NCBI GenBank assembly: GCA_016212395.1
Contig: JACRGF010000006.1
Location: forward strand, 1 to 41,442
Length of the DNA stretch: 41,442 nt
Direction of reading: 5' to 3'
Origin: Microcaldota archaeon
GTDB lineage: Archaea > Micrarchaeota > Micrarchaeia > Burarchaeales > JACRGF01
A program made the translations under genes and the position numbers. Under the pieces are notes generated by a model. That model made no database searches, had not been told where the DNA came from, and saw only the letters and a program-made list of their open reading frames with translations. This document shows positions 7,079 to 39,224 of this stretch, in pieces (within the stretch, counting starts at the first letter, position 1; each line of letters opens with the position of its first letter).

Positions 7079-8356
7079 ATGGCAACACAACCTCCTGCCA
7101 CGGCAGTGAAAAACACTGCAACTGTTATTCCTTCCCTTCGCGTAGCAGTAAGTCCAGCGTGCAACTTCAACTGCGTCTACTGCCCGCCAAACAAGGGCGA
7201 GCACCGTGACCTTTCAACGCGCTTGAGAAGGCAATGGGACTCAAAGAGAATGGCGCAAATAACTCGAGTTTATTCAAAGCTCGGAGCTCCAAGCATCCGC
7301 GTTACCGGCGGAGAGCCGTTGCACCCTGCAGCGTTCGCGCGCGTCCCGCCTCTTGTTGAAGCAGCTGCAGACGCTGGCGTTGAAGTGCGGGTGAACACTA
7401 ACGGCTACTATGTTGAAGAAAACCTTTCCACTCTTGTTGCAATGCGCGGTCAAGCCACAGCAGGCTTTATGCTTTCAGTCAGCCTTGATGCTACTGACGC
7501 GCGAGAGTTCGCGTTGCTCACGCAAAGCAGTGAGGACGCGTTCGATAAAGTAGTGCGCGGGGCAAGGAAAGCGCGAGACGCGGGCATTCCTGTCCTAATC
7601 AACATGGTGTTGATTGACTTGGACAAGCCTGACAGGCTCGCGCGTGACCCGCACATAATGCTTCCGCGAGTAATAGACAAAATGCTGAAAATGGCCGAGT
7701 TCTGCATTGCTGAAGGATTCGACTTGAAAATCCTCGACTTGAACTGGTACTCACAGCCAGGCAAAATGTTTTGGGAGTCAAATTACTCGAGTGCTACTCT
7801 TGCGTTGGAAGAGTTTTTGAAAGCAGTAGAAGACGAGCGCATTCCCGCGCACGTTCAGTCAAAAATAGTGCGCGAGCCAGGCAACTACGGAATTCCCATG
7901 CCCACGTTCTGGTTCGAGAGCGCGCGCGGAAAGCGAGTGAGCGTCACGTTCAAAGACAGCGAACTCGGAACAACTTACAGCTACTACTGCTATTCATGCT
8001 CGTTGATTCCAAAAACCGGATTGATTCACGCTGAAATGTGCCAGGAAGGATTATACCAATCCGTTCTAACGAGCAATCAAATTATAACTGCATGCAGGCA
8101 CAAGCAAAGCGAACTCGCGACAGACTTGATCCACCAACGAACAGATGCTGACATCAAAGGCGCGCTGCGCAGCTTCCTCACGTGCTTCACGCTCGGTTTT
8201 TTCCAGCCAGTAAAAAACATGGCGCACGAATTAAGATTCCCGCGCACATGGAAAATGCTCGAGCAGTTCCACGCTGAAGTCGCATCAACCCCTCAAACTA
8301 AGCTGGTTGTAGTTAATGAAGAATTAGGGCGACGCAATAGAAAGAAAAGACGTTGA
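7079..8356 (+). CDS. Radical SAM protein, MoaA-like fold
   Basis: 425 residues. Cys28, Cys32 and Cys35 in SPACNFNCVYCPP form the CxxxCxxC motif that holds the 4Fe-4S cluster and cleaves S-adenosylmethionine. GGEP at residues 77-80 binds the SAM amino group. Further conserved-looking elements are VNTNGYY, FMLSVSLDA and INMVLID, as in the MoaA-type barrel. The C-terminal part has a cysteine group (YYCYSCSLIP and AEMCQEG, about residues 302-325) that might hold a second cluster, but the spacing differs from MoaA. No molybdenum cofactor genes are nearby, so I would not call it moaA. The substrate is unknown. The downstream gap to the convergent winged-helix gene is T-rich. Confidence 0.85.
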   Translation: MATQPPATAVKNTATVIPSLRVAVSPACNFNCVYCPPNKGEHRDLSTRLRRQWDSKRMAQITRVYSKLGAPSIRVTGGEPLHPAAFARVPPLVEAAADAGVEVRVNTNGYYVEENLSTLVAMRGQATAGFMLSVSLDATDAREFALLTQSSEDAFDKVVRGARKARDAGIPVLINMVLIDLDKPDRLARDPHIMLPRVIDKMLKMAEFCIAEGFDLKILDLNWYSQPGKMFWESNYSSATLALEEFLKAVEDERIPAHVQSKIVREPGNYGIPMPTFWFESARGKRVSVTFKDSELGTTYSYYCYSCSLIPKTGLIHAEMCQEGLYQSVLTSNQIITACRHKQSELATDLIHQRTDADIKGALRSFLTCFTLGFFQPVKNMAHELRFPRTWKMLEQFHAEVASTPQTKLVVVNEELGRRNRKKRR

Positions 8357-8461: not shown

Positions 8462-9451
8462 TTATTTTTTCTTTTTGTGCTGTGCGTAAACTTCCTTCAG
8501 CCTCTTTTCTTGCTCTGCCAAATGCTTGCTGCCTCTCTTTGAAGCCAGTTTCACTCCGTCCTTGAAAATGTCGAGGAACGTTGCCTTGTTGTTTGCAGCA
8601 ATATCATATGAATCCACTTTCAGCCAGCACCTTGTCCTGAACCTGTTGCCCCGCATGTACAAGTAGCACGTCCTCGGCTCGTCAACTTCAGTCATGAGCA
8701 TGTTCACTCCGTGAGGATAATCGACAAACCGCGCGTCAACATTCGGCAGCGAAATCACGCGCTTCACGTTCTGCAAAGCAGCCTTGCACTCTTCCAAAGC
8801 CAAGTCTGCGTCGTTGTAAGCATCAAGCACCCAGCCGAACGCGTACTCTATCTGCATGTTCGTCAAGCTCAAAATCTTCAATTCTTTTCTCCTCAACGTG
8901 CGCTCCCACAACCCGTCAACGTAACGCGCAAGCGAATCGAACTTTTCCACTTTCTGCCTTGCCTTCACTATGCCCGGAGTGTAAAAAATAGTTGGAAACC
9001 TTCCCGTAGAATAATAAACGCTCGCGCGCTGCAACTCGCTTCCAAGCGAGTGAAACAACCCATCAACGTCCATCGTCTCAATCAATGGCTTCGCTTCAAT
9101 CGCGTGCATTCCACTCAAAAACCCGCTCACTTTCCTAGTGACTGCCTCTGCCTCTTCAACTTTCCTCAAGTGCGAATCCTTCTTCGATTCTATCGCGTTC
9201 GTTATCCCGTCAACATCCACGACGTAATTCGCAGACTCGCGCCTGCCCACAAGCCCTAATTTTATCAAAAACTTCAACTGGCTGAACAAGTTAGGAGTCT
9301 GAATCATTTTCCCGGTAAGCACGGCATACGCCTTTTCAATGCTCTTCGGATTGCTTTTTTCGCTGTCCTTATTCAAGTTGTAAATAGACATTAAAATTTC
9401 GAACTGCTGATTCGTTATGCCCAGCCAATCAACAATTTCTTCAACGTCCAA
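8462..9451 (-). CDS. Winged-helix protein of unknown role
   Basis: 329 residues from a TTG at 9451. I choose this start because the strong ribosome binding site ggaggtgg sits 6 bases before it; the track start at 9730 crosses a TATA box and the neighbouring lipoprotein gene. The first 90 residues (DVEEIVDWLGITNQQFEILMSIYNL ... NLFSQLKFLIKLGLVGRRESANYVVDVDG) look like a winged-helix DNA-binding fold as in TrmB-type archaeal regulators. The remaining 240 residues are helical and then mixed, with no motif I recognise (YYSTGRFPTIFYTPG, TCYLYMRGNRFRTRCWLKVDSYD), and end in a lysine tail. It may be a regulator with a sensor domain; this is inference. An ATG at 9535 is a weaker alternative start. 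Confidence 0.7.
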   Translation of the reverse strand: MDVEEIVDWLGITNQQFEILMSIYNLNKDSEKSNPKSIEKAYAVLTGKMIQTPNLFSQLKFLIKLGLVGRRESANYVVDVDGITNAIESKKDSHLRKVEEAEAVTRKVSGFLSGMHAIEAKPLIETMDVDGLFHSLGSELQRASVYYSTGRFPTIFYTPGIVKARQKVEKFDSLARYVDGLWERTLRRKELKILSLTNMQIEYAFGWVLDAYNDADLALEECKAALQNVKRVISLPNVDARFVDYPHGVNMLMTEVDEPRTCYLYMRGNRFRTRCWLKVDSYDIAANNKATFLDIFKDGVKLASKRGSKHLAEQEKRLKEVYAQHKKKK

Positions 9452-9564
9452 AGCAATCCACCTCCAGCCACACTTGAAACGTTTCGAGTTTTCGGTTTTC
9501 AGTTTTGAGCGCACTGAACACAACCGCCCACACATGACGTAATGAATTAGCCTATACTGCCTGC

Positions 9565-9574
9565 TATATAAATA
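9565..9574. promoter_or_regulatory. TATA box in a divergent promoter region
   Basis: tatataaata lies between the minus-strand winged-helix gene and the plus-strand lipoprotein gene. It fits the plus-strand gene (TSS near 9595, then a short leader with gaggt and the ATG at 9618). The near-symmetric sequence could also serve the minus strand, giving a leader of about 90 bases. Confidence 0.55.
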
Positions 9575-9617
9575 CTTTTTGCTTTCAATTTGTTTCAAGA
9601 AAGACGAGGTTTTGCGC

Positions 9618-10068
9618 ATGAACAAGTTTTTCGCGTTTTCAATTTCATTCGCTCTACTGCTTTTTTCAGGCTGCACTCTCGTGCCAGGCGTAAACGGTTC
9701 AGACTCAAATCTAGTCGGCGAGTGGCGCATCTATTCTGAAAAATTTTTTACGACGAAGGCGGAAGCAATTCCTTGCAAACTCCAGTAACCCGCAAGCTAG
9801 AGCTGGCTTCTTTCGGATCATGGAATTTCGGCGATTCTTCAGGCACGTGGAGCGTTGAAGAAGCGAGCGAAGAGGACTGGAAAGAATGGGGCGTTGAACC
9901 GTACGGGCCGACTAAAAAACTTGTTTTAAACGGCTGGAGCGGCGATAAAGCAAGCGGCCCTATAGAAGAATCTGATGAGCGAATCGACTTTTTTTGGTGA
10001 TTTACCGTGCCGAACCTCCGATAGTGAACAACGCTGGGCAAGTTCAAATAAAGTTTGGCCACGTTTGA
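9618..10068 (+). pseudogene. Lipoprotein gene broken by two single-base frameshifts
   Basis: The ATG at 9618 follows an aagacgaggt ribosome binding site. The protein starts MNKFFAFSISFALLLFSGC, a signal peptide with lipobox FSGC. Frame 1 reaches LVGEWRIYSEKFF and then shifts at a run of six T (9744-9749). One extra T would give FFYDEGGSNSLQTPVTRKLEL, which joins the next ORF exactly. That ORF stops at FFW at a run of seven T (9989-9995); one extra T there would give FFLVIYRAEPPIVNNAGQVQIKFGHV and a stop at 10066-10068. Repaired, the protein would have about 149 residues and one conserved-looking domain (LVGEW ... GTWSVEE). Both lesions are a missing T in a homopolymer, so sequencing error is as likely as real decay. 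I do not recognise the domain. Confidence 0.7.
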
Positions 10069-10137: not shown

Positions 10138-11550
10138 GTGTGGACTACATCTGAAATAGCAATCCCTTCCAACCCGCTAGATTTCATCATCGGCCAAGAC
10201 GAAGCAGTTTCATTCGCGCGCATTGCAGCCAAGCAACGCCGAAACCTCCTGCTCGTAGGGCCTCCGGGCACTGGCAAGAGCCTCATTGCACAAGCGCTCG
10301 CGCACTTGCTCCCGCGCCCGTTGCAGGAAGTTTCCGTGCTTCACAACCCGAGCACTCCTGAAAAGCCGATTCTTGAAGTTCGCTCGCAAGAGCAAATCGC
10401 GAGCGAAGCGAAAACTTTCCACGAAGGAAAAATCGTTTCACTCACGCAAGTTCCATTCCAAGTGCTTGAACGCCTGGGCTTCAAGTGCAAGCGGTGCGGG
10501 TTGACGAGCGACGTAAACGCTTCAGTGTGCCCTGACTGCGGGGCAGACAAGTACAAGAAGGAAACAACCTTGCTCGACGAGTTCACGTTCAGGTTCGACG
10601 CTCCAATCAAGCTCGAAAAAACAGTCCACACTACAATACAAAAAAACGGGCGCGAAGAACGCGCTGCGTTCGAACGCTCTGACGACGGAAAAATATTTCT
10701 GTACGATGGCGAAGCGCTCGCGAAGATAGAAAAGGAACGCCAGCGAAAGCCGCGCAAAATCCTTCTTTCACTGGAAAGAAAAACGTTCGTGCAAGCAACG
10801 AGCGCGAGCGAAACAGAACTGCTTGGGGACGTGAAGCACGACCCGTACGGCGGACACCCGAAAATCGGCTTGCAACCGTTTGAATGCATCGTGCCAGGCG
10901 CTGTGCATGAAGCGCACGAAGGCGTTTTGTTTATAGACGAGTTGAGCACGCTTGGCAGGCTCCAGAAATTCATTCTAACTGCAATGCAGGACAAGCAATT
11001 CCCAATAACTGGAAAAAACGCTTCCTCTACAGGCGCGAGCGTGCGCGTTGACAGCGTGCCCTGCGACTTTATCCTCGTGGGCGCGATAAACACTGCTGAA
11101 GTTCCAAGCCTCCTGCCAGCACTCCGCTCGCGCATTACAGGAAACGGGTACGAAGTGCTCTTGAAAGCAACAATGCCTGAAAACAAGCAGAACAAAGAAA
11201 AGCTCGTGCAGTTCATAGCGCAGGAAATACGCAAGGACGGCAAGATTCCACACGCGGACAAGCAGGCTGTTGAAAAAATAATTTCAGAAGCGAAAAACCG
11301 CGCGAAGCAAATCGACGACAAGAACGGTTACACTCTCCGCCTCCGCGAACTAAGCGGGCTGGTGAAACTTGCTGGAGACCTCGCAGTCTCTGAAGAAGCC
11401 AATGCAATTCAAGCAAAACACGTCGAGCAAGCGCTCGAACGAAGCAAGACAATAGAAGAACAAGCAACAGAACAATACGGCTCGCTGTGGAAAACACAAG
11501 CAAGCGACTACTCAACGAAAAAAAGAAAAAACTCTACAGACGTTGTGTGA
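10138..11550 (+). CDS. LonB-like AAA+ ATPase with zinc ribbon, lacking the protease domain
   Basis: 470 residues. The ATPase matches the archaeal LonB type: IGQDEAVSFARIAAKQRRNLLLVGPPGTGKS (Walker A, about residues 19-48), HEAHEGVLFIDELSTL (Walker B, about residue 265), the sensor-like FILVGAINTAE, and PALRSRITGNGYEV. In LonB the insert between Walker A and B carries two membrane helices. Here it carries a zinc ribbon instead (CKRCG ... CPDCG, about residues 119-139), followed by a charged region. The lid (GYTLRLRELSGLVKLAGDLAV) is present, but the protein ends soon after, without the S16 Ser-Lys protease domain; LonB is about 620-650 residues. It is probably a soluble unfoldase or remodeller. 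The GTG start lies 28 bases after a TATA box. Confidence 0.85.
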   Translation: MWTTSEIAIPSNPLDFIIGQDEAVSFARIAAKQRRNLLLVGPPGTGKSLIAQALAHLLPRPLQEVSVLHNPSTPEKPILEVRSQEQIASEAKTFHEGKIVSLTQVPFQVLERLGFKCKRCGLTSDVNASVCPDCGADKYKKETTLLDEFTFRFDAPIKLEKTVHTTIQKNGREERAAFERSDDGKIFLYDGEALAKIEKERQRKPRKILLSLERKTFVQATSASETELLGDVKHDPYGGHPKIGLQPFECIVPGAVHEAHEGVLFIDELSTLGRLQKFILTAMQDKQFPITGKNASSTGASVRVDSVPCDFILVGAINTAEVPSLLPALRSRITGNGYEVLLKATMPENKQNKEKLVQFIAQEIRKDGKIPHADKQAVEKIISEAKNRAKQIDDKNGYTLRLRELSGLVKLAGDLAVSEEANAIQAKHVEQALERSKTIEEQATEQYGSLWKTQASDYSTKKRKNSTDVV

Positions 11551-16340: not shown

Positions 16341-17729
16341 TTACTTTCTTTTTTCTTTTCTCTCCAAGTATTCAGCGTAGCCTGCAGCGTGTTTTAATGC
16401 TTTCATTGCCGCATTCGGAGAGTGGTAAGTGGGCACGCCGTACGAGTCGAGAATCCTGCAGTGAACGTCCGTGTATTCCCCTCCAGTTGCGACTATTATA
16501 ATCGGTTTTTTTCTTTCATCAGACGCTTTAATTATCGCGTTCACGACGTTCGAGTCCAGCCCGACTGTCTGGAATAAGGTTATTACTATAATCACGTCCA
16601 CGTTTTCGTCTTCAAGCAAAGCGTCGAGCGCGAGTTCGTACCTTTTCGAGTCAGCGTCGCCAACCAAGTCAAGCGGGTTTCTTACAGTCACGTAATTCGG
16701 AAGTTTTTCAACAAGCTTCTTTTTCGTGTCGCTCGAGAGTTCAGCGAGCTTCAATCCCGTTTGCTCTGCAGCGTCTGCAGCAAGCACTCCGTAGCCCCCT
16801 CCGTTAGTCATTATGCCTATTCTTTTTCCTTTCGGGAGAGGCTGGTCAAATATTTTTGAAAAGTAGAATAGTTCCATTAATGTTTCCGCTTCGATTATTT
16901 TCGCCTGCTTGAACAACGCCTTGTACGCTTCACTAGAGCCTGCGAGTGCTGCGGTATGCGATTTCGCAGCAGCAGCGCCTCCAACGCTTATTCCCGCCTT
17001 AATCATGATTACTGGTTTTTTCACAGTGACTTTTTTTGCTGCTTCAAGAAACTCCCGTCCTCTCTTTACTCCTTCAACGTAGCACACTATTATTTTTGTT
17101 TTCTCGTCGTTGCCCAAGTACTCGAGCAGCATCGTTTCGTCTATCACTGAAGCGTTTCCGTACGAAACGAATTTTGAAACGCCAAGCCCAGCGCGCGCAG
17201 CCAAGTCGAGAATACACCCGCCTACTGCACCGCTTTGGCTCATGAAGCTCACTCCGCCAACATGCGGCCTGCCCATTTTATACACTGGCAGGAAAACGCT
17301 GTCCACTCTCGACGACGGGTTTAACACGCCCAAGCAGTTCGGGCCTATCACTGCAATTCCGTACTTTCGAGCGATTTCCTCAATTTGCTTTTCGCCTTCA
17401 ACATTCCCAACTTCACTAAACCCGCCTGAAATTATCACTGCGCCTTTCACCCCATTCTCCCCGCACTCGCGCAACGCGCTTGGAACGAATTTAGCCGGAA
17501 CAGCGAAAATCGCGCAGTCAATCTTTCCTTTCACTGCTGAAACGCTCGGGTAGCACTTCAATCCGATTATCTCTCTAGCATTCGGGTTGATAGGGTAAAT
17601 TTTTCCAGCAAAGCCAGAGTCAATAAAATTCTTTACAATCGCATGGCCGACTTTATTCGGCTCGCGTGACGCTCCGATTATCGCAACGCTCTTCGGGTTA
17701 AAGATAGACTCTAAATTCATTTCCATCAC
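16341..17729 (-). CDS. acdA: ADP-forming acyl/acetyl-CoA synthetase, alpha subunit
   Basis: 462 residues. It converts acyl-CoA, ADP and phosphate to the free acid, CoA and ATP, the archaeal route from acetyl-CoA to acetate. The N-terminal CoA-binding Rossmann domain begins NPKSVAIIGASREPNKVGHAIVKNF. The succinyl-CoA synthetase-like ligase domain follows (GPNCLGVLNP, SFMSQSGAVGG). KSHTAALAGS at about residue 257 carries the catalytic histidine that becomes phosphorylated. Length matches the separate alpha subunit of hyperthermophile enzymes (about 460). The GTG start abuts the stop of the beta-subunit gene, so the two are translationally coupled; ATG at codon 2 or 4 is possible. Energy conservation by fermentation is the likely role. 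Confidence 0.93.
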   Translation of the reverse strand: MMEMNLESIFNPKSVAIIGASREPNKVGHAIVKNFIDSGFAGKIYPINPNAREIIGLKCYPSVSAVKGKIDCAIFAVPAKFVPSALRECGENGVKGAVIISGGFSEVGNVEGEKQIEEIARKYGIAVIGPNCLGVLNPSSRVDSVFLPVYKMGRPHVGGVSFMSQSGAVGGCILDLAARAGLGVSKFVSYGNASVIDETMLLEYLGNDEKTKIIVCYVEGVKRGREFLEAAKKVTVKKPVIMIKAGISVGGAAAAKSHTAALAGSSEAYKALFKQAKIIEAETLMELFYFSKIFDQPLPKGKRIGIMTNGGGYGVLAADAAEQTGLKLAELSSDTKKKLVEKLPNYVTVRNPLDLVGDADSKRYELALDALLEDENVDVIIVITLFQTVGLDSNVVNAIIKASDERKKPIIIVATGGEYTDVHCRILDSYGVPTYHSPNAAMKALKHAAGYAEYLERKEKRK

Positions 17730-18356
17730 TTACTCTACTATTCTCACGTCAACAACATCATACCCTTTCTCGTGCACAATTACAGGGTTCAAATCCAGTT
17801 CTTTCACTTTCTCTTCTTTCACCATGAGCTTGCTCACTTGCATCAACAATTTTCTTATTGCAGTAACGTCTGAAGGAAGCGTCCCGCGCACTCCAGTTAG
17901 CAACGGGTATGTTTTTATTTCGCGAATCATTTCATCAGCATCTTGTTCAGTTATGGGGCAAATTCTGATTGAAACGTCTCGCAACACTTCAACAAACACG
18001 CCTCCAAGCCCGAATATTACGAGTGGCCCGAACTGCGCGTCCCGCTTTCCTCCCACGATAAGCTCTACTCCTTTGCGCGCCATTTTCTGAACAAGCACTC
18101 CATCAACTTTCGCGCTTCCTGCATTGTGAATTATTTCGTCGAACGCGTGCTCGAGCGTTTTTTCACTAGTTATTCCAACGCGCACGCATCCCTTGTCGCT
18201 CTTGTGAGAAATTTCCTTGGAAACAACTTTCAACACTACTGGAAAACCCATTTTTGCTGCAGCTTTCTTTGCTTCCCTCTTGTCTCTCGCAATGCTTCCG
18301 CTAATAACTTTCACGCCGTATTTTTCAAGCAGCCCCACCGCTTGAACGTAATCCAT
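17730..18356 (-). CDS. acdB: ADP-forming acyl/acetyl-CoA synthetase, beta subunit (ATP-grasp)
   Basis: 208 residues, close to the usual beta length (about 230). It is an ATP-grasp nucleotide-binding subunit: AKKMGFPVVLKVVSKEISHKSDKGCVRVGI holds the conserved ISHKSD block with the second phosphohistidine site, and FGPLVIFGLGGVFVEVLRDVSIRICPI and LDLNPVIVHEKG are conserved family blocks. The ATG at 18356 has agagg about 8 bases upstream. The gene lies 22 bases after a membrane-anchored winged-helix protein gene and directly before the alpha subunit, forming a three-gene minus-strand operon. Confidence 0.93.
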   Translation of the reverse strand: MDYVQAVGLLEKYGVKVISGSIARDKREAKKAAAKMGFPVVLKVVSKEISHKSDKGCVRVGITSEKTLEHAFDEIIHNAGSAKVDGVLVQKMARKGVELIVGGKRDAQFGPLVIFGLGGVFVEVLRDVSIRICPITEQDADEMIREIKTYPLLTGVRGTLPSDVTAIRKLLMQVSKLMVKEEKVKELDLNPVIVHEKGYDVVDVRIVE

Positions 18357-35003: not shown

Positions 35004-38000
35004 ATGAGTGAAAAAAACTTTTCTCTCTTTTTTCTTGTCTGCCTGGTTTCGAGTTTGGCTGTCGCAGGACAGTTTTTTTCAATTTCCCTGCCTTCATGCG
35101 ACGACTACTGCGCGGGCAGCGTGAGCTACGCGAGCGGAAGCTACAACTCTGAAACAGGCGCCTGTTCTTACGCGTCAGCAACCCACTGCAGCAACGGGTG
35201 CGACGAGAGTGGAACAGCGTGCGCTCAAGGAACAACGGGAAGTGAAAGCACGCGCACGACAACTTCAACAACCACTGATTCAAGAGAAACAACTGAAACA
35301 GAAGGAACAGCGTCTGGTTCAACTGCTGATTCGAGCAGGACAACGACTGTTTCAACTGAAACTAATTCTTCAACATCTCGTTCAACTGATTCAAGCAGGA
35401 CAACGTCAACAACTGGAACCGGAGCGACAACGTCGGGTTCAACAACTTCCACGCGCTCGTGCCCCAACTACTGCGCTGACAACGCGCTTTACTCGCGCGG
35501 AACGTTCAATTCAGACTCGAACGAATGCGTTTATTCTTCCCGCACTGTTTGTGCTTACGGTTGCAATGCTGGAGGAACTACATGCGCTTCAACAGCTTCA
35601 GCAACTCCAACTGACTGTTCAGCTTACTGTGCAAACAAAAACTATTACGGCAGGGGAAGCTTCAACACTGCAACAGGAAAATGCGCTTACGCTGTTACGA
35701 TCGCGTGCGATTACGGTTGCAACGCTCAAGGAACAGACTGCGCGCCTGCAAGCAGAACTATTACAATAAATGAAACAACAACTTCAAACGCTTCTCGTTC
35801 AACAACCGTCACGTCAAACGCAACAGCAACAAATGCTTCTCGTGCAAATGCAACTTCAAACGCTTCACGCACGATTGCTTCGAACGCTTCAACAACTTCC
35901 TCTAACGCTTCACGCGCAATAATCGTTTCATCAAACGAAACAATTTCTTCCAATGCTTCTCGTGCAGTTTCAGCAACTTCTTCTAATGCTTCTGTTTCAA
36001 GAGCGTGCTTGGATTACTGTGCTGACGGGTTTTTCTATTCGAAAGGGAATTACAGCGCGCGCTTGAACGAGTGCGTTTACGGCAATCGTCTTGCGTGCGA
36101 GTTCGAGTGCGTTGAAAACGAAACTGTTTGCGCTGAAGAAACCGGAATGGGCGGGGCGCAGCCTGATTTTGAAGTGAAAAACGTTTCTGCAAAAAAACAA
36201 AAGTATCGCTTGGGAGAGAAAATAGAGGTTTTTGCGGATATAGAAGAAATGGAAAATGCCAAAGCGGTTCGCGAGTTTTCAGTGCAGTGGTTCATTAACT
36301 CGACGCCGTTCAAGGACGAACGGATGGCTAACTTCAGCAACAGGGAAAAGAGGAAAGCAAAGTTTGAGTTTACTCCGGAAAAGCCAGGTGTTTACAAGAT
36401 TGAAGTTTTTGCGGACAGCAAGAACGATTTTAATGAAAAAGCAGAGTCTAACAACAAGAACAGCGTTATTTTGAGCGTGCTTGAAGAATACGCTGAACTA
36501 GATTCTGACGAAGACGGCGTGAAAGACTTGCAGGACAAGTGCCAGCAGACTCCCGACGGCATTAAAGTGGACGAGAACGGATGTCCAGCGTGCAAGATTG
36601 ACTCGGATGGAAGCAATTATTTCGAGCAAGGCGCAGTCGGCTACTTTATTTGGGGAGAAGAAATAATGCCTGCAAACCCGAAAGAATACCCTGGAGGATT
36701 CAAAATAGCGTCCACGCTCGATTATGAAACTCCGTTCGAAGACGTTTGCTCTTACGACGGAAAATCAGTGTGGGAGTACTCATGCGACGTTGACGAAAAC
36801 GAGTGCGTTGACGTTGCTGGCAGCAGCGATTTTCTCTACTACCTCGCGTCAGGAAGCTTGAGTGAAGGCAAAAAATGGAAGCTGGAAGAAGCTTACTGCG
36901 TCATCCACCCTGCTACTCCAATTGAAGGCGGGAAAACTGTTTTGGAAAGCCACGCGTGCACGTGCGGTTGCGCGAACGGAGCGTGCAATGAAGAAATCGA
37001 TTCAGATAAGGACGGAACGTTTGATTGCAAAGATGATGATGACGACAACGACGGCGTTGCAGACAATAACGACAACTGCCTTCTGGCTGTGAACGCGAAC
37101 CAGCTTGACACTGACAATGACGGGAAAGGCAACGTGTGCGATGATGACGACGACAACGACGGGTGCGTTGATTCTGACGATGACTCGCCTCTAGTGAAAG
37201 GCCCTGACAAGGACAAGGACGGGATTGCGAATTTTTGCGACAACTGCTGGGAAGAAAAAAATGCATTGCAACAGGATTACGATGGCGACGAAGTGGGCGA
37301 CGTGTGCGACAACTGCCAGTTTACTTTCAACGACTTGCAGATAGACTCTGATGGAGATGATGTCGGCGACGCTTGCGACAACTGCAAGAATGCGAAGAAC
37401 GCAAACCAGAATGACAATGACAATGACGGGCTTGGAAACGCGTGCGACAATTGCCCTAATAATGTCAACGCAAACCAAGCGAATGTAGATAATGACGATG
37501 AAGGCGACGCGTGCGATTGCGACGACGTGCAGCAAGCAGGCTCTGAAACAGGAGTGGACTGCGGCGGAAGTTGCCAAGCGTGCGTTGCGTGCACATGGTG
37601 CGGAAACCAAGTGACTCCAATCCGCATTCGAGGTGATCCAAACACTAATGACAATCTAATCGACGTAGTGTTCGTTCCAGGCACTGAACTCAATGCTACG
37701 ATGAACGTTTACCAAACTCGCGTCATCAATGCAATCCGCTATTATTACTTGACGATGGACGAGCGCAGTGTAGACCCGATTCCTGCGAACTACAAGAACT
37801 TGTTCAACTTTTATTATTACAACGGAGGGTTCGGGCAAATGCCTCCTCCTTGCGCTGGAACGCTTCCAGCAAACTTTTGGGCTGACGCGCCGTTCGCAGA
37901 CACTGGCGCAATAATGACTGTAACGTGGACTGCATGCACGAACGTATTGTACCCCCCAAGCCATTTTTCCGCTCAAGCAAACATGGGCGACTTGATTATT

Positions 38001-39224
38001 CACGAGAGTGGCCATGGAATTTACGGGCTGAGGGACGAGTACTGCGGGAACACTGCTTACGGACAGCAGGCTGACGCTCCAAACATTTGGAGCAGCCTTG
38101 CAAACTGCCAGAACGACGCTGCAGGCGAGCCTGGCTGGAACTTGGGAAACTGCAGGCAGATTCAAGACGTGAACGCGCTCGGGCAAGTAACGTGCCAGAA
38201 AAACTATTGGAGGTACGATCCTGATGCTCCGACGAATTCTTACATGATTGCGTGCGGTGGAAACGGATGCCCCACTGTCGCACCAAACTCTAACTACCAG
38301 TTTTGGGAGGCTGAAGCAAGGCACGTGAACTGGGCGTACGACAACTGGCCTGTCGGAGACACTAAAGGATTTTTGGTTAAATTGAATTTGCGTGACGGAG
38401 TGATGACTGAGTTGAGTTCTCAAGTTGTTTCAAGCCATCCTAACGTCGGGTTGCAGGCAAGAGACTTTACAGTCGAATTGATTGCTGAAGACGGAACTCT
38501 CATGCAGTCTTTCGGAATGGCTGACCCGAGAATACAATTTGGTGAAGAAAGCGTTTACTACAACGAAATAGACTTTCCGTTGTTGTTCGCGTGGCATGAA
38601 GGCTTGCGGAAAGTCGATATTCTCAACAGTTCGACGAACGAGTTCGTGCTTTCAGTGGACTTGCTTAAAGCAATCAGCAGTTTCTGCGAGCAAAACCCTT
38701 CAGAGAAGGAATGCAGTGTGCACGTGGGAAGCGTTGACGTCGTAAACGTAAACCCCGGTGCTGCAACTGGCGGCGTTAGCGGAACAGTTTCAGTGAACAA
38801 CGCGCAAGTAGTGTTCACTCAAGTGAACGGGCAAGTGAATTTCGGAACAGAAGGAACGCAGGCAGTCATCATTCTCGTGAACAAAGAGAAAGGAAAAGCA
38901 ACAATAGAATCAAGCAACCAGACTGCTGAAACTAACGAAACGCTGAAAATAGATTCCGGCAACCTCTACGTGAACGGAAAGCAAGTGAAAGCAAGCCCGC
39001 ATTCTGCAGTTGCAAAAGCGAAAGAAAAAGAAGGCATTAGCGTGGAAAGCGTTGAATTATCAACTAAAAACAGCAAGCCTGCTTATACGATTACCGGAAA
39101 GAAAAACGTGAAAATCCTTGGAGTGCTCCCAACGACAACGCAAGCGAGAGTGCAAGTGAACGCTGAAACGAACGAAGTGGAAAAAGTTTCAAAACCATGG
39201 ATAGCCAACTTTGCAACAGATTAA
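35004..39224 (+). CDS. Giant secreted M64-like metalloprotease with Cys-rich, CARDB and thrombospondin type 3 modules
   Basis: 1406 residues. Signal peptide at 1-21. Four related modules of about 44 residues, pattern CxxYC...C.Y....C..GC...GT.CA, lie at about 31-74, 152-195, 204-247 and 334-377. They are joined by Ser/Thr-rich linkers, one dense in NAS/NAT glycosylation sites (SNASRSTT, TSSNASRA). A CARDB-like domain (PDFEVKNVSAKKQKYRLGEKIEVFAD ... SNNKNSVILSV) spans about 390-490. Thrombospondin type 3 repeats, calcium-binding DxDxDG, fill about 660-860 (DTDNDGKGNVCDDDDDNDGC, DSDGDDVGDACDNC). The protease domain (about 880-1120) has HESGHGIYGLRDEY near residue 1000, the HExxHxxxGxxDEY pattern of peptidase family M64 (IgA protease-like). 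About 280 beta-rich residues end it, with no C-terminal membrane helix. It is likely cell-surface bound or released, and degrades outside proteins. Confidence 0.88.
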   Translation: MSEKNFSLFFLVCLVSSLAVAGQFFSISLPSCDDYCAGSVSYASGSYNSETGACSYASATHCSNGCDESGTACAQGTTGSESTRTTTSTTTDSRETTETEGTASGSTADSSRTTTVSTETNSSTSRSTDSSRTTSTTGTGATTSGSTTSTRSCPNYCADNALYSRGTFNSDSNECVYSSRTVCAYGCNAGGTTCASTASATPTDCSAYCANKNYYGRGSFNTATGKCAYAVTIACDYGCNAQGTDCAPASRTITINETTTSNASRSTTVTSNATATNASRANATSNASRTIASNASTTSSNASRAIIVSSNETISSNASRAVSATSSNASVSRACLDYCADGFFYSKGNYSARLNECVYGNRLACEFECVENETVCAEETGMGGAQPDFEVKNVSAKKQKYRLGEKIEVFADIEEMENAKAVREFSVQWFINSTPFKDERMANFSNREKRKAKFEFTPEKPGVYKIEVFADSKNDFNEKAESNNKNSVILSVLEEYAELDSDEDGVKDLQDKCQQTPDGIKVDENGCPACKIDSDGSNYFEQGAVGYFIWGEEIMPANPKEYPGGFKIASTLDYETPFEDVCSYDGKSVWEYSCDVDENECVDVAGSSDFLYYLASGSLSEGKKWKLEEAYCVIHPATPIEGGKTVLESHACTCGCANGACNEEIDSDKDGTFDCKDDDDDNDGVADNNDNCLLAVNANQLDTDNDGKGNVCDDDDDNDGCVDSDDDSPLVKGPDKDKDGIANFCDNCWEEKNALQQDYDGDEVGDVCDNCQFTFNDLQIDSDGDDVGDACDNCKNAKNANQNDNDNDGLGNACDNCPNNVNANQANVDNDDEGDACDCDDVQQAGSETGVDCGGSCQACVACTWCGNQVTPIRIRGDPNTNDNLIDVVFVPGTELNATMNVYQTRVINAIRYYYLTMDERSVDPIPANYKNLFNFYYYNGGFGQMPPPCAGTLPANFWADAPFADTGAIMTVTWTACTNVLYPPSHFSAQANMGDLIIHESGHGIYGLRDEYCGNTAYGQQADAPNIWSSLANCQNDAAGEPGWNLGNCRQIQDVNALGQVTCQKNYWRYDPDAPTNSYMIACGGNGCPTVAPNSNYQFWEAEARHVNWAYDNWPVGDTKGFLVKLNLRDGVMTELSSQVVSSHPNVGLQARDFTVELIAEDGTLMQSFGMADPRIQFGEESVYYNEIDFPLLFAWHEGLRKVDILNSSTNEFVLSVDLLKAISSFCEQNPSEKECSVHVGSVDVVNVNPGAATGGVSGTVSVNNAQVVFTQVNGQVNFGTEGTQAVIILVNKEKGKATIESSNQTAETNETLKIDSGNLYVNGKQVKASPHSAVAKAKEKEGISVESVELSTKNSKPAYTITGKKNVKILGVLPTTTQARVQVNAETNEVEKVSKPWIANFATD

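What the first reader, a model, noticed from the sequence alone, without database searches (positions are those of the whole stretch)
10138..11550. LonB-type ATPase in which a zinc ribbon replaces the membrane insert and the protease is missing
Archaeal LonB is membrane-bound with an S16 protease domain. This protein keeps the ATPase and lid but has CKRCG...CPDCG in the insert position and ends after the lid. It may be a soluble unfoldase or nucleic-acid-linked remodeller derived from LonB.
Basis: partly seen in the sequence, partly recalled or inferred. Interest (0 to 1): 0.6.

Follow-up and report, generated by a model that had tools for sequence, protein, structure and literature searches.

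The report
Zinc-ribbon Lon-like ATPase beside dnaG
This gene makes a water-soluble, ATP-powered ring protein that is an ancient sister of the archaeal LonB protease but has a zinc-binding domain instead of a membrane anchor and no protease; in several archaeal groups its gene sits directly behind the gene for DnaG, an RNA-binding part of the RNA-degrading exosome, so it probably remodels RNA-protein complexes rather than digesting proteins.

Summary
Window 10138-11550 encodes a 470-aa AAA+ ATPase. Its closest sequence and structural relative is archaeal LonB. A domain with an invariant C-x2-C-x10-C-x2-C ribbon sits where LonB has its transmembrane insert, and there is no S16 protease. It is neither a fragment nor a local oddity. 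It is an ancient paralogue family (48-60% identity) in Micrarchaeota (inferred to be the window's phylum), Thermoplasmatota, Methanobacteria, Methanopyri and Altiarchaeota. Almost always it coexists with a true, membrane-inserted LonB, which this genome also carries. A tree separates the two families by one 100/100 branch; which state is older is unresolved. New here: the gene lies immediately downstream of archaeal dnaG, on the same strand, in 50 of 53 Thermoplasmatota genomes, in all Methanobacteria loci examined, in Altiarchaeota and Methanopyri, and in 10 of 15 genomes of the window's own order. The window genome has lost this linkage. Archaeal DnaG is an RNA-binding cap subunit of the exosome (PMC4227792). 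Best reading: a soluble ATP-driven ring that remodels ribonucleoprotein or nucleic-acid complexes handled by DnaG. The family, the anatomy and the dnaG linkage are shown. The mechanism is inferred. No description of the family or the linkage was found in the searched open-access library.

The parts
10138..11550 (+). Coding sequence of the zinc-ribbon LonB-like AAA+ ATPase (470 aa, GTG start, stop included)
   Evidence: conserved full length in relatives
10258..10281 (+). Walker A GPPGTGKS (residues 41-48)
   Evidence: G41, P43, G44, G46, K47, S48 invariant or nearly so in 57 sequences and shared with LonB
10378..10773 (+). Inserted domain (residues 81-212) in the place of the LonB membrane insert: helix, zinc ribbon, flexible linker, beta hairpin, helix
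   Evidence: no PDB fold match at E<=0.001
10486..10539 (+). Zinc ribbon C117-x2-C120-x10-C131-x2-C134
   Evidence: four Cys invariant in 57/57 sequences, identical spacing; weak zinc-ribbon/rubredoxin-type Pfam matches
10927..10941 (+). Walker B LFIDE (residues 264-268)
   Evidence: L264, D267, E268 invariant, same in LonB
11089..11133 (+). Sensor 1 N318 and arginine-finger segment R330-S331-R332
   Evidence: invariant, same in LonB
11185..11445 (+). LonB-type AAA+ lid (residues 350-436), with R401/R403 in the sensor-2 region
   Evidence: PF20436 match; R403 shared with LonB
11446..11547 (+). C-terminal tail (residues 437-470; conserved E440...YGS...) where LonB would continue into the S16 protease
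   Evidence: no protease downstream

Best explanation
A distinct, ancient archaeal paralogue of LonB that is a working, soluble AAA+ ring ATPase. Shown by sequence and model: intact Walker A, Walker B, sensor 1, arginine finger and lid; a zinc-ribbon domain in place of the membrane insert; no peptidase. Shown by comparative genomics: its gene forms a two-gene unit with archaeal dnaG. Inferred: the ring hydrolyses ATP to grip and thread or pull substrate protein segments, as LonB does before proteolysis. Because it has no peptidase, the outcome is unfolding or disassembly, not degradation. The zinc-ribbon insert, on the side where LonB is anchored to the membrane, docks the ring on DnaG or on RNA. 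The likely task is ATP-driven remodelling of ribonucleoprotein or nucleic-acid complexes handled by DnaG, most plausibly at the exosome (release of proteins from RNA, or assembly and disassembly of the DnaG-bound cap).
For: Family and anatomy. All catalytic ATPase positions are invariant over 57 sequences from several phyla. Paralogy with LonB in the same genomes. dnaG linkage: dnaG immediately upstream on the same strand in 50/53 Thermoplasmatota genomes with both genes, with the 3 exceptions lying on different contigs; in all 16 further loci examined, including Methanobacteria L193-L197 and L111, Altiarchaeota L114 and Thermoplasmata L133; in the great majority of non-Micrarchaeota genome-contig loci including Methanopyri L128; and in 13 of 95 genomes of the window's phylum, 10 of them among the 15 same-order relatives, with 10 more within 6 kb. 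Gaps are mostly 36-180 nt. DnaG identity: NF003108, 551.7 bits. DnaG as an exosome RNA-binding cap subunit: PMC4227792. Every Methanobacteriota genome with the ATPase also has the exosome subunit Rrp41.
Against: No physical contact between the ATPase and DnaG or the exosome has been tested. In the window's own genome dnaG is on another contig (C40:9136-10527). DnaG and Rrp41 are also present in most genomes that lack the ATPase (families f9 and f13; most of Methanobacteriota), so the ATPase is dispensable for DnaG or exosome function in general, and co-occurrence itself is uninformative. Archaeal DnaG has also been discussed as a replication or repair protein (PMC2643942), so the link does not single out RNA. 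Translocation and ring formation are inferred from LonB, not shown.
Confidence: 0.5

Rival explanations
1. DNA-side remodeller: DnaG acts here in replication or repair and the ATPase, a cousin of MCM and ComM rings, remodels or translocates on DNA with it.
For: Structural neighbours after LonB and LonC include BchI, MCM and ComM helicases. In Methanobacteria the next gene is a Xer-type tyrosine recombinase and the one before dnaG is a small Toprim protein (PRK04017). dnaG is adjacent to PolB3 or near RPA in other lineages and a replication/repair role was proposed (PMC2643942).
Against: Sequence is far closer to the protein-unfolding LonB than to MCM/ComM (E 1e-83 against weak partial matches). 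The recombinase neighbour is seen only in part of the lineages. Published biochemistry ties archaeal DnaG to the exosome (PMC4227792).
Confidence: 0.2
2. Ribosome-assembly or translation remodeller: the zinc ribbon binds rRNA or ribosomal proteins and the ring acts in ribosome biogenesis.
For: The zinc-ribbon profile's faint best PDB resemblances are many rRNA-binding ribbons (eL40, eL37, Nop10). [quoted passage not shown]
Against: Those matches are at E 0.01-0.6 and typical for any short ribbon. No ribosomal genes recur next to it.
Confidence: 0.12
3. Regulatory or adaptor subunit of LonB: it co-assembles with LonB ATPase subunits or feeds unfolded proteins to LonB.
For: 46% mean identity of ATPase cores, shared interface motifs, and almost every genome examined that has it also has LonB.
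Against: No linkage to lonB; LonB is present without it in whole families (f9) and in most Methanobacteriota. LonB is membrane-anchored and carries its own ATPase and protease. G303 has this ATPase without a detected LonB.
Confidence: 0.08
4. A truncated LonB pseudogene or an assembly artefact.
For: Ends after the lid; scores below the LonB cut-off.
Against: Full-length, stop-free, 48-60% identical members in over 100 genomes of several phyla, invariant catalytic and zinc residues, own conserved insert and tail.
Confidence: 0.01

Closest known systems
Archaeal LonB protease (TIGR00764; T. onnurineus LonB, PDB 3k1j/4zpx)
   Same: AAA+ core with the same motifs, LonB lid, insert between Walker A and Walker B; best sequence and fold match.
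   Different: Insert is a zinc-ribbon domain without TM helix, and there is no S16 protease domain; separate clade, 100/100.
Bacterial LonC (MtaLonC, PDB 4fw9)
   Same: Next closest fold (E about 1e-12); Lon-type AAA+ module.
   Different: LonC keeps a peptidase (PDB descriptions); no zinc ribbon was noted; about 17% identity.
Mg-chelatase BchI / ComM (YifB) / MCM AAA+ rings
   Same: Same wider AAA+ branch; partial Pfam and Foldseek matches.
   Different: Much weaker similarity; different inserts; no LonB lid.
Archaeal DnaG (exosome cap subunit) as genetic partner
   Same: Adjacent co-directional gene in several archaeal groups.
   Different: Not homologous; physical partnership untested.

Membership tests
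Archaeal LonB protease | LonB-type AAA+ ATPase core (Walker A/B, sensor 1, Arg finger) | tested here: met
Archaeal LonB protease | LonB lid domain (PF20436) | tested here: met
   residues 372-436, E 1.6e-4, 22.0 bits against gathering 22.4; phmmer alignment to 3k1j runs to residue 448
Archaeal LonB protease | Transmembrane insert between Walker A and Walker B | tested here: not met
   0/32 family members against 14/14 LonB
Archaeal LonB protease | S16 protease domain with [E/D]GDSA[S/T] active site (signature from PMC2605481) | tested here: not met
   absent from the ORF and from all six frames of the window; present in the genome's true LonB
Archaeal LonB protease | Curated TIGR00764 cut-off | tested here: not met
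   350.9 against 516.6 bits
Archaeal LonB protease | Falls inside the LonB clade | tested here: inconclusive
   Separated by one 100/100 branch; rooting with LonA/YifB/MCM/RuvB failed
MCM / ComM / Mg-chelatase ATPases | Full-length family match above cut-off | tested here: not met
   Only partial domain matches: PF01078 3.1e-16 on the P-loop region, PF00493 27.0 bits; YifB TIGR00368 47 bits against 362
Exosome- or DnaG-associated cofactor | Conserved operon with dnaG | tested here: met
Exosome- or DnaG-associated cofactor | Physical association with DnaG, Csl4 or the exosome | not testable with these tools
   needs pull-down or complex prediction
Exosome- or DnaG-associated cofactor | Found only where the exosome is found | tested here: inconclusive
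   All Methanobacteriota genomes with it have Rrp41, but so do nearly all without it; exosome-lacking lineages could not be sampled

The most novel reading that the evidence does not exclude
A protein-threading AAA+ ring of LonB type, without protease and membrane anchor, serves as the ATP-driven ribonucleoprotein remodeller of the archaeal exosome through DnaG: an archaeal counterpart in role, though not in kind, of the helicase cofactors of the eukaryotic exosome.
Probability: 0.3. Interest if true: 0.82.

Novelty: new variant of a known kind. Interest (0 to 1): 0.62.

Why it matters
A conserved archaeal ATPase family whose closest curated model is 'LonB protease' lacks both the protease and the membrane anchor, so automatic annotation would mislead. 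Its tight, cross-phylum gene pairing with dnaG offers a concrete, testable lead to an energy-dependent partner of archaeal DnaG and the exosome, whose role and partners are still debated. It also shows that a protease-type ring has become, or has always existed as, a stand-alone remodelling ring with a nucleic-acid-type zinc ribbon.

Tried and rejected
Rooting the LonB/zinc-ATPase tree with E. coli LonA, YifB, RuvB and the own MCM: outgroup branches saturated (length about 10), result discarded. E. coli YcbZ did not align well and was not used. Phylogenetic profiling against DnaG and Rrp41: both near-universal, so uninformative beyond 'ATPase genomes also have them'. Fold search with the insert alone: no PDB match at E<=0.001. 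Phage records: no match; plasmid records: only ordinary haloarchaeal LonB plus weak bacterial matches. Literature: no paper on a zinc-ribbon LonB paralogue or a dnaG link in the held library. A guessed M. thermautotrophicus locus name (MTH892, from memory) returned nothing. Pseudogene or artefact rejected on conservation. A difference in how far the DnaG profile matches (C-terminal part) between Thermoplasmata with and without the ATPase was seen but is confounded by phylogeny and was not used.

Full report
1. The observation. The ORF at 10138-11550 (+) encodes 470 residues. It matches TIGR00764 'ATP-dependent protease LonB' at 350.9 bits, below the curated cut-off of 516.6. The best solved structures by sequence are T. 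onnurineus LonB (3k1j, 4zpx; E about 1e-82), in two blocks, residues 3-79 and 214-448, with an unmatched stretch between them. That stretch contains the CKRCG...CPDCG ribbon. Aligned with 14 LonB proteins, it occupies the place of the LonB membrane insert. All 14 LonB inserts hold a TM-grade hydrophobic stretch and no cysteine. All 32 members of this family tested hold at least four cysteines and no TM-grade stretch. The protease is absent: the genome's own LonB matches nothing significant in the window beyond 11478, and no Lon active-site signature occurs in six frames.

2. A true LonB exists elsewhere. Genome G000 has a separate gene at C60:63242-65167 with the S16 domain (PF05362, 103 bits) and the TM insert. 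In almost every relative examined that has the zinc-ribbon protein, a LonB is encoded by a separate gene, and so it is in 16 of 17 genomes reached in other phyla (G303 shows no LonB hit).

3. A family, not a fragment. Members at 48-60% identity occur throughout the window's class, except in two large families (f9, f13) in which no member was found among the listed genomes. Several of these genomes have contigs of the same length and coordinates as records titled Candidatus Micrarchaeota, from which I infer that the phylum is Micrarchaeota. Members also occur in Thermoplasmata, Methanomassiliicoccales, DHVE2/Aciduliprofundum, Methanobacteria, Methanopyri and Altiarchaeota. In whole-genome samples, 19 of 150 genomes of the Methanobacteria phylum and 54 of 145 Thermoplasmatota have it. 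The scan showed only the best 80 of 577 loci, so Halobacteriota, Thermoproteota and Asgard archaea are untested.

4. Anatomy. In 57 sequences the four ribbon cysteines, Walker A (G44, G46, K47, S48), Walker B (D267, E268), sensor 1 N318, R330/R332 and the lid arginines R401/R403 are invariant, and the ribbon spacing is x2-x10-x2 in 57/57. The core motifs are the same in LonB. An AlphaFold2 model has mean pLDDT 87.4. The insert is a helix, the zinc ribbon, a disordered linker (142-156), a beta hairpin and a helix; folded alone it gives the same elements (pLDDT 83.5). Against the PDB the whole model matches LonB (E 3e-34), then LonC (1e-13 to 1e-11), BchI, MCM and ComM. The insert alone has no match at E<=0.001.

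5. Phylogeny. On ATPase-core columns only (insert excluded), 32 zinc-ribbon ATPases and 14 LonBs are separated by one 100/100 branch. Mean identity is 62% within the zinc family, 67% within LonB and 46% between them. Both families span the same phyla, so the split is older than those phyla or was spread early. Polarity is not resolved: distant outgroups were saturated. 'Derived from LonB' is therefore plausible but not shown.

6. Gene neighbourhood: the main new result. In loci from other phyla the gene immediately upstream on the same strand is archaeal dnaG (NF003108, 551.7 bits). In a whole-genome sample of Thermoplasmatota this holds for 50 of 53 genomes with both genes; in the 3 exceptions the genes lie on different contigs. 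In one search the gene at position -1 lies on the same strand in all 16 loci; dnaG is recognised there from the printed sequences (L193, L195, L199, L133), (L111, L114) and from the coordinates for most of the rest. In Methanobacteria the order is small Toprim protein (PRK04017), dnaG, ATPase, Xer-type recombinase. In the window's phylum linkage is partial: 13 of 95 genomes have dnaG directly upstream, among them 10 of the 15 same-order relatives, and 10 more have it within 6 kb. With genomes of about 1 Mb, chance would give well under one directly adjacent pair (my estimate). In the window's genome dnaG is at C40:9136-10527 and the ATPase instead lies between unrelated genes, with a prolyl-tRNA synthetase downstream.

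7. What it most likely does. Archaeal DnaG is an RNA-binding cap subunit of the exosome that enables rRNA tailing (PMC4227792); a replication or repair role has also been proposed from gene context (PMC2643942). A LonB-type ring without protease and membrane anchor, with an intact ATPase and a zinc ribbon where LonB is anchored, is best read as a soluble ATP-driven remodeller working with DnaG. Shown: family, anatomy, catalytic conservation, paralogy, dnaG linkage. Inferred: ring assembly and substrate threading (from LonB), docking through the insert, and action on exosome-bound ribonucleoprotein. Against over-reading: DnaG and Rrp41 occur in nearly all genomes that lack the ATPase, so it is an accessory factor at most.

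8. Known or new. By defining features it is not a LonB protease: no S16 domain, no TM insert, below the curated cut-off. It works on a LonB-type ATPase chassis. No paper describing the family or the dnaG link was found in the held open-access library; subscription papers and orthologous-group catalogues could not be checked. I rate it a new variant of a known kind.

Noticed in passing
L207 (G012:C15), L210 (G023:C3), L211 (G058:C7): The true LonB of several relatives is interrupted by a full intein inserted after ...HDPLQ (HDPLQT in one) and before SGGLGTP, in the conserved block ahead of Walker B; the G012 chunk matches TIGR01445 intein_Nterm (49.4 bits, cut-off 24.5).
   Followed up: partly
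L209 (G029:C7 about 143.3-144.5 kb, +) and L208 (G029:C7 about 52.7-54.1 kb, -); likewise L213 and L212 (G006): At the same LonB site the intein is split into two separate genes: an N-half ending in an intein N-terminal region (TIGR01445, 31.6 bits) and a C-half beginning with an intein C-terminal motif (TIGR01443, 18.3 bits against 15.6), 90 kb apart on opposite strands in G029. LonB there probably matures by protein trans-splicing. The listed match coordinates suggest the same in G001, G033, G037 and G052.
   Followed up: partly
G303:C1 (genome of L118): A single-contig genome with the zinc-ribbon ATPase but no LonB hit.
   Followed up: no
L193-L197, L111 (upstream of dnaG): A small Toprim protein family (PRK04017, weakly RNase M5-like) is a recurrent third member of the dnaG-ATPase unit.
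   Followed up: partly
window 16341-18356 (-): Succinyl-CoA-ligase-like subunit and ATP-grasp_5 subunit encoded as two adjacent genes, as in ADP-forming acyl-CoA synthetases.
   Followed up: no
window 7079-8356 (+): A radical SAM protein resembling MoaA in its first 180 residues only, far below the MoaA cut-offs.
   Followed up: no
window 8462-9730 (-): A 422-aa ORF next to the ATPase with no match in Pfam or NCBIfam.
   Followed up: no
window 35004-39224 (+): A 1406-aa open reading frame, not examined.
   Followed up: no
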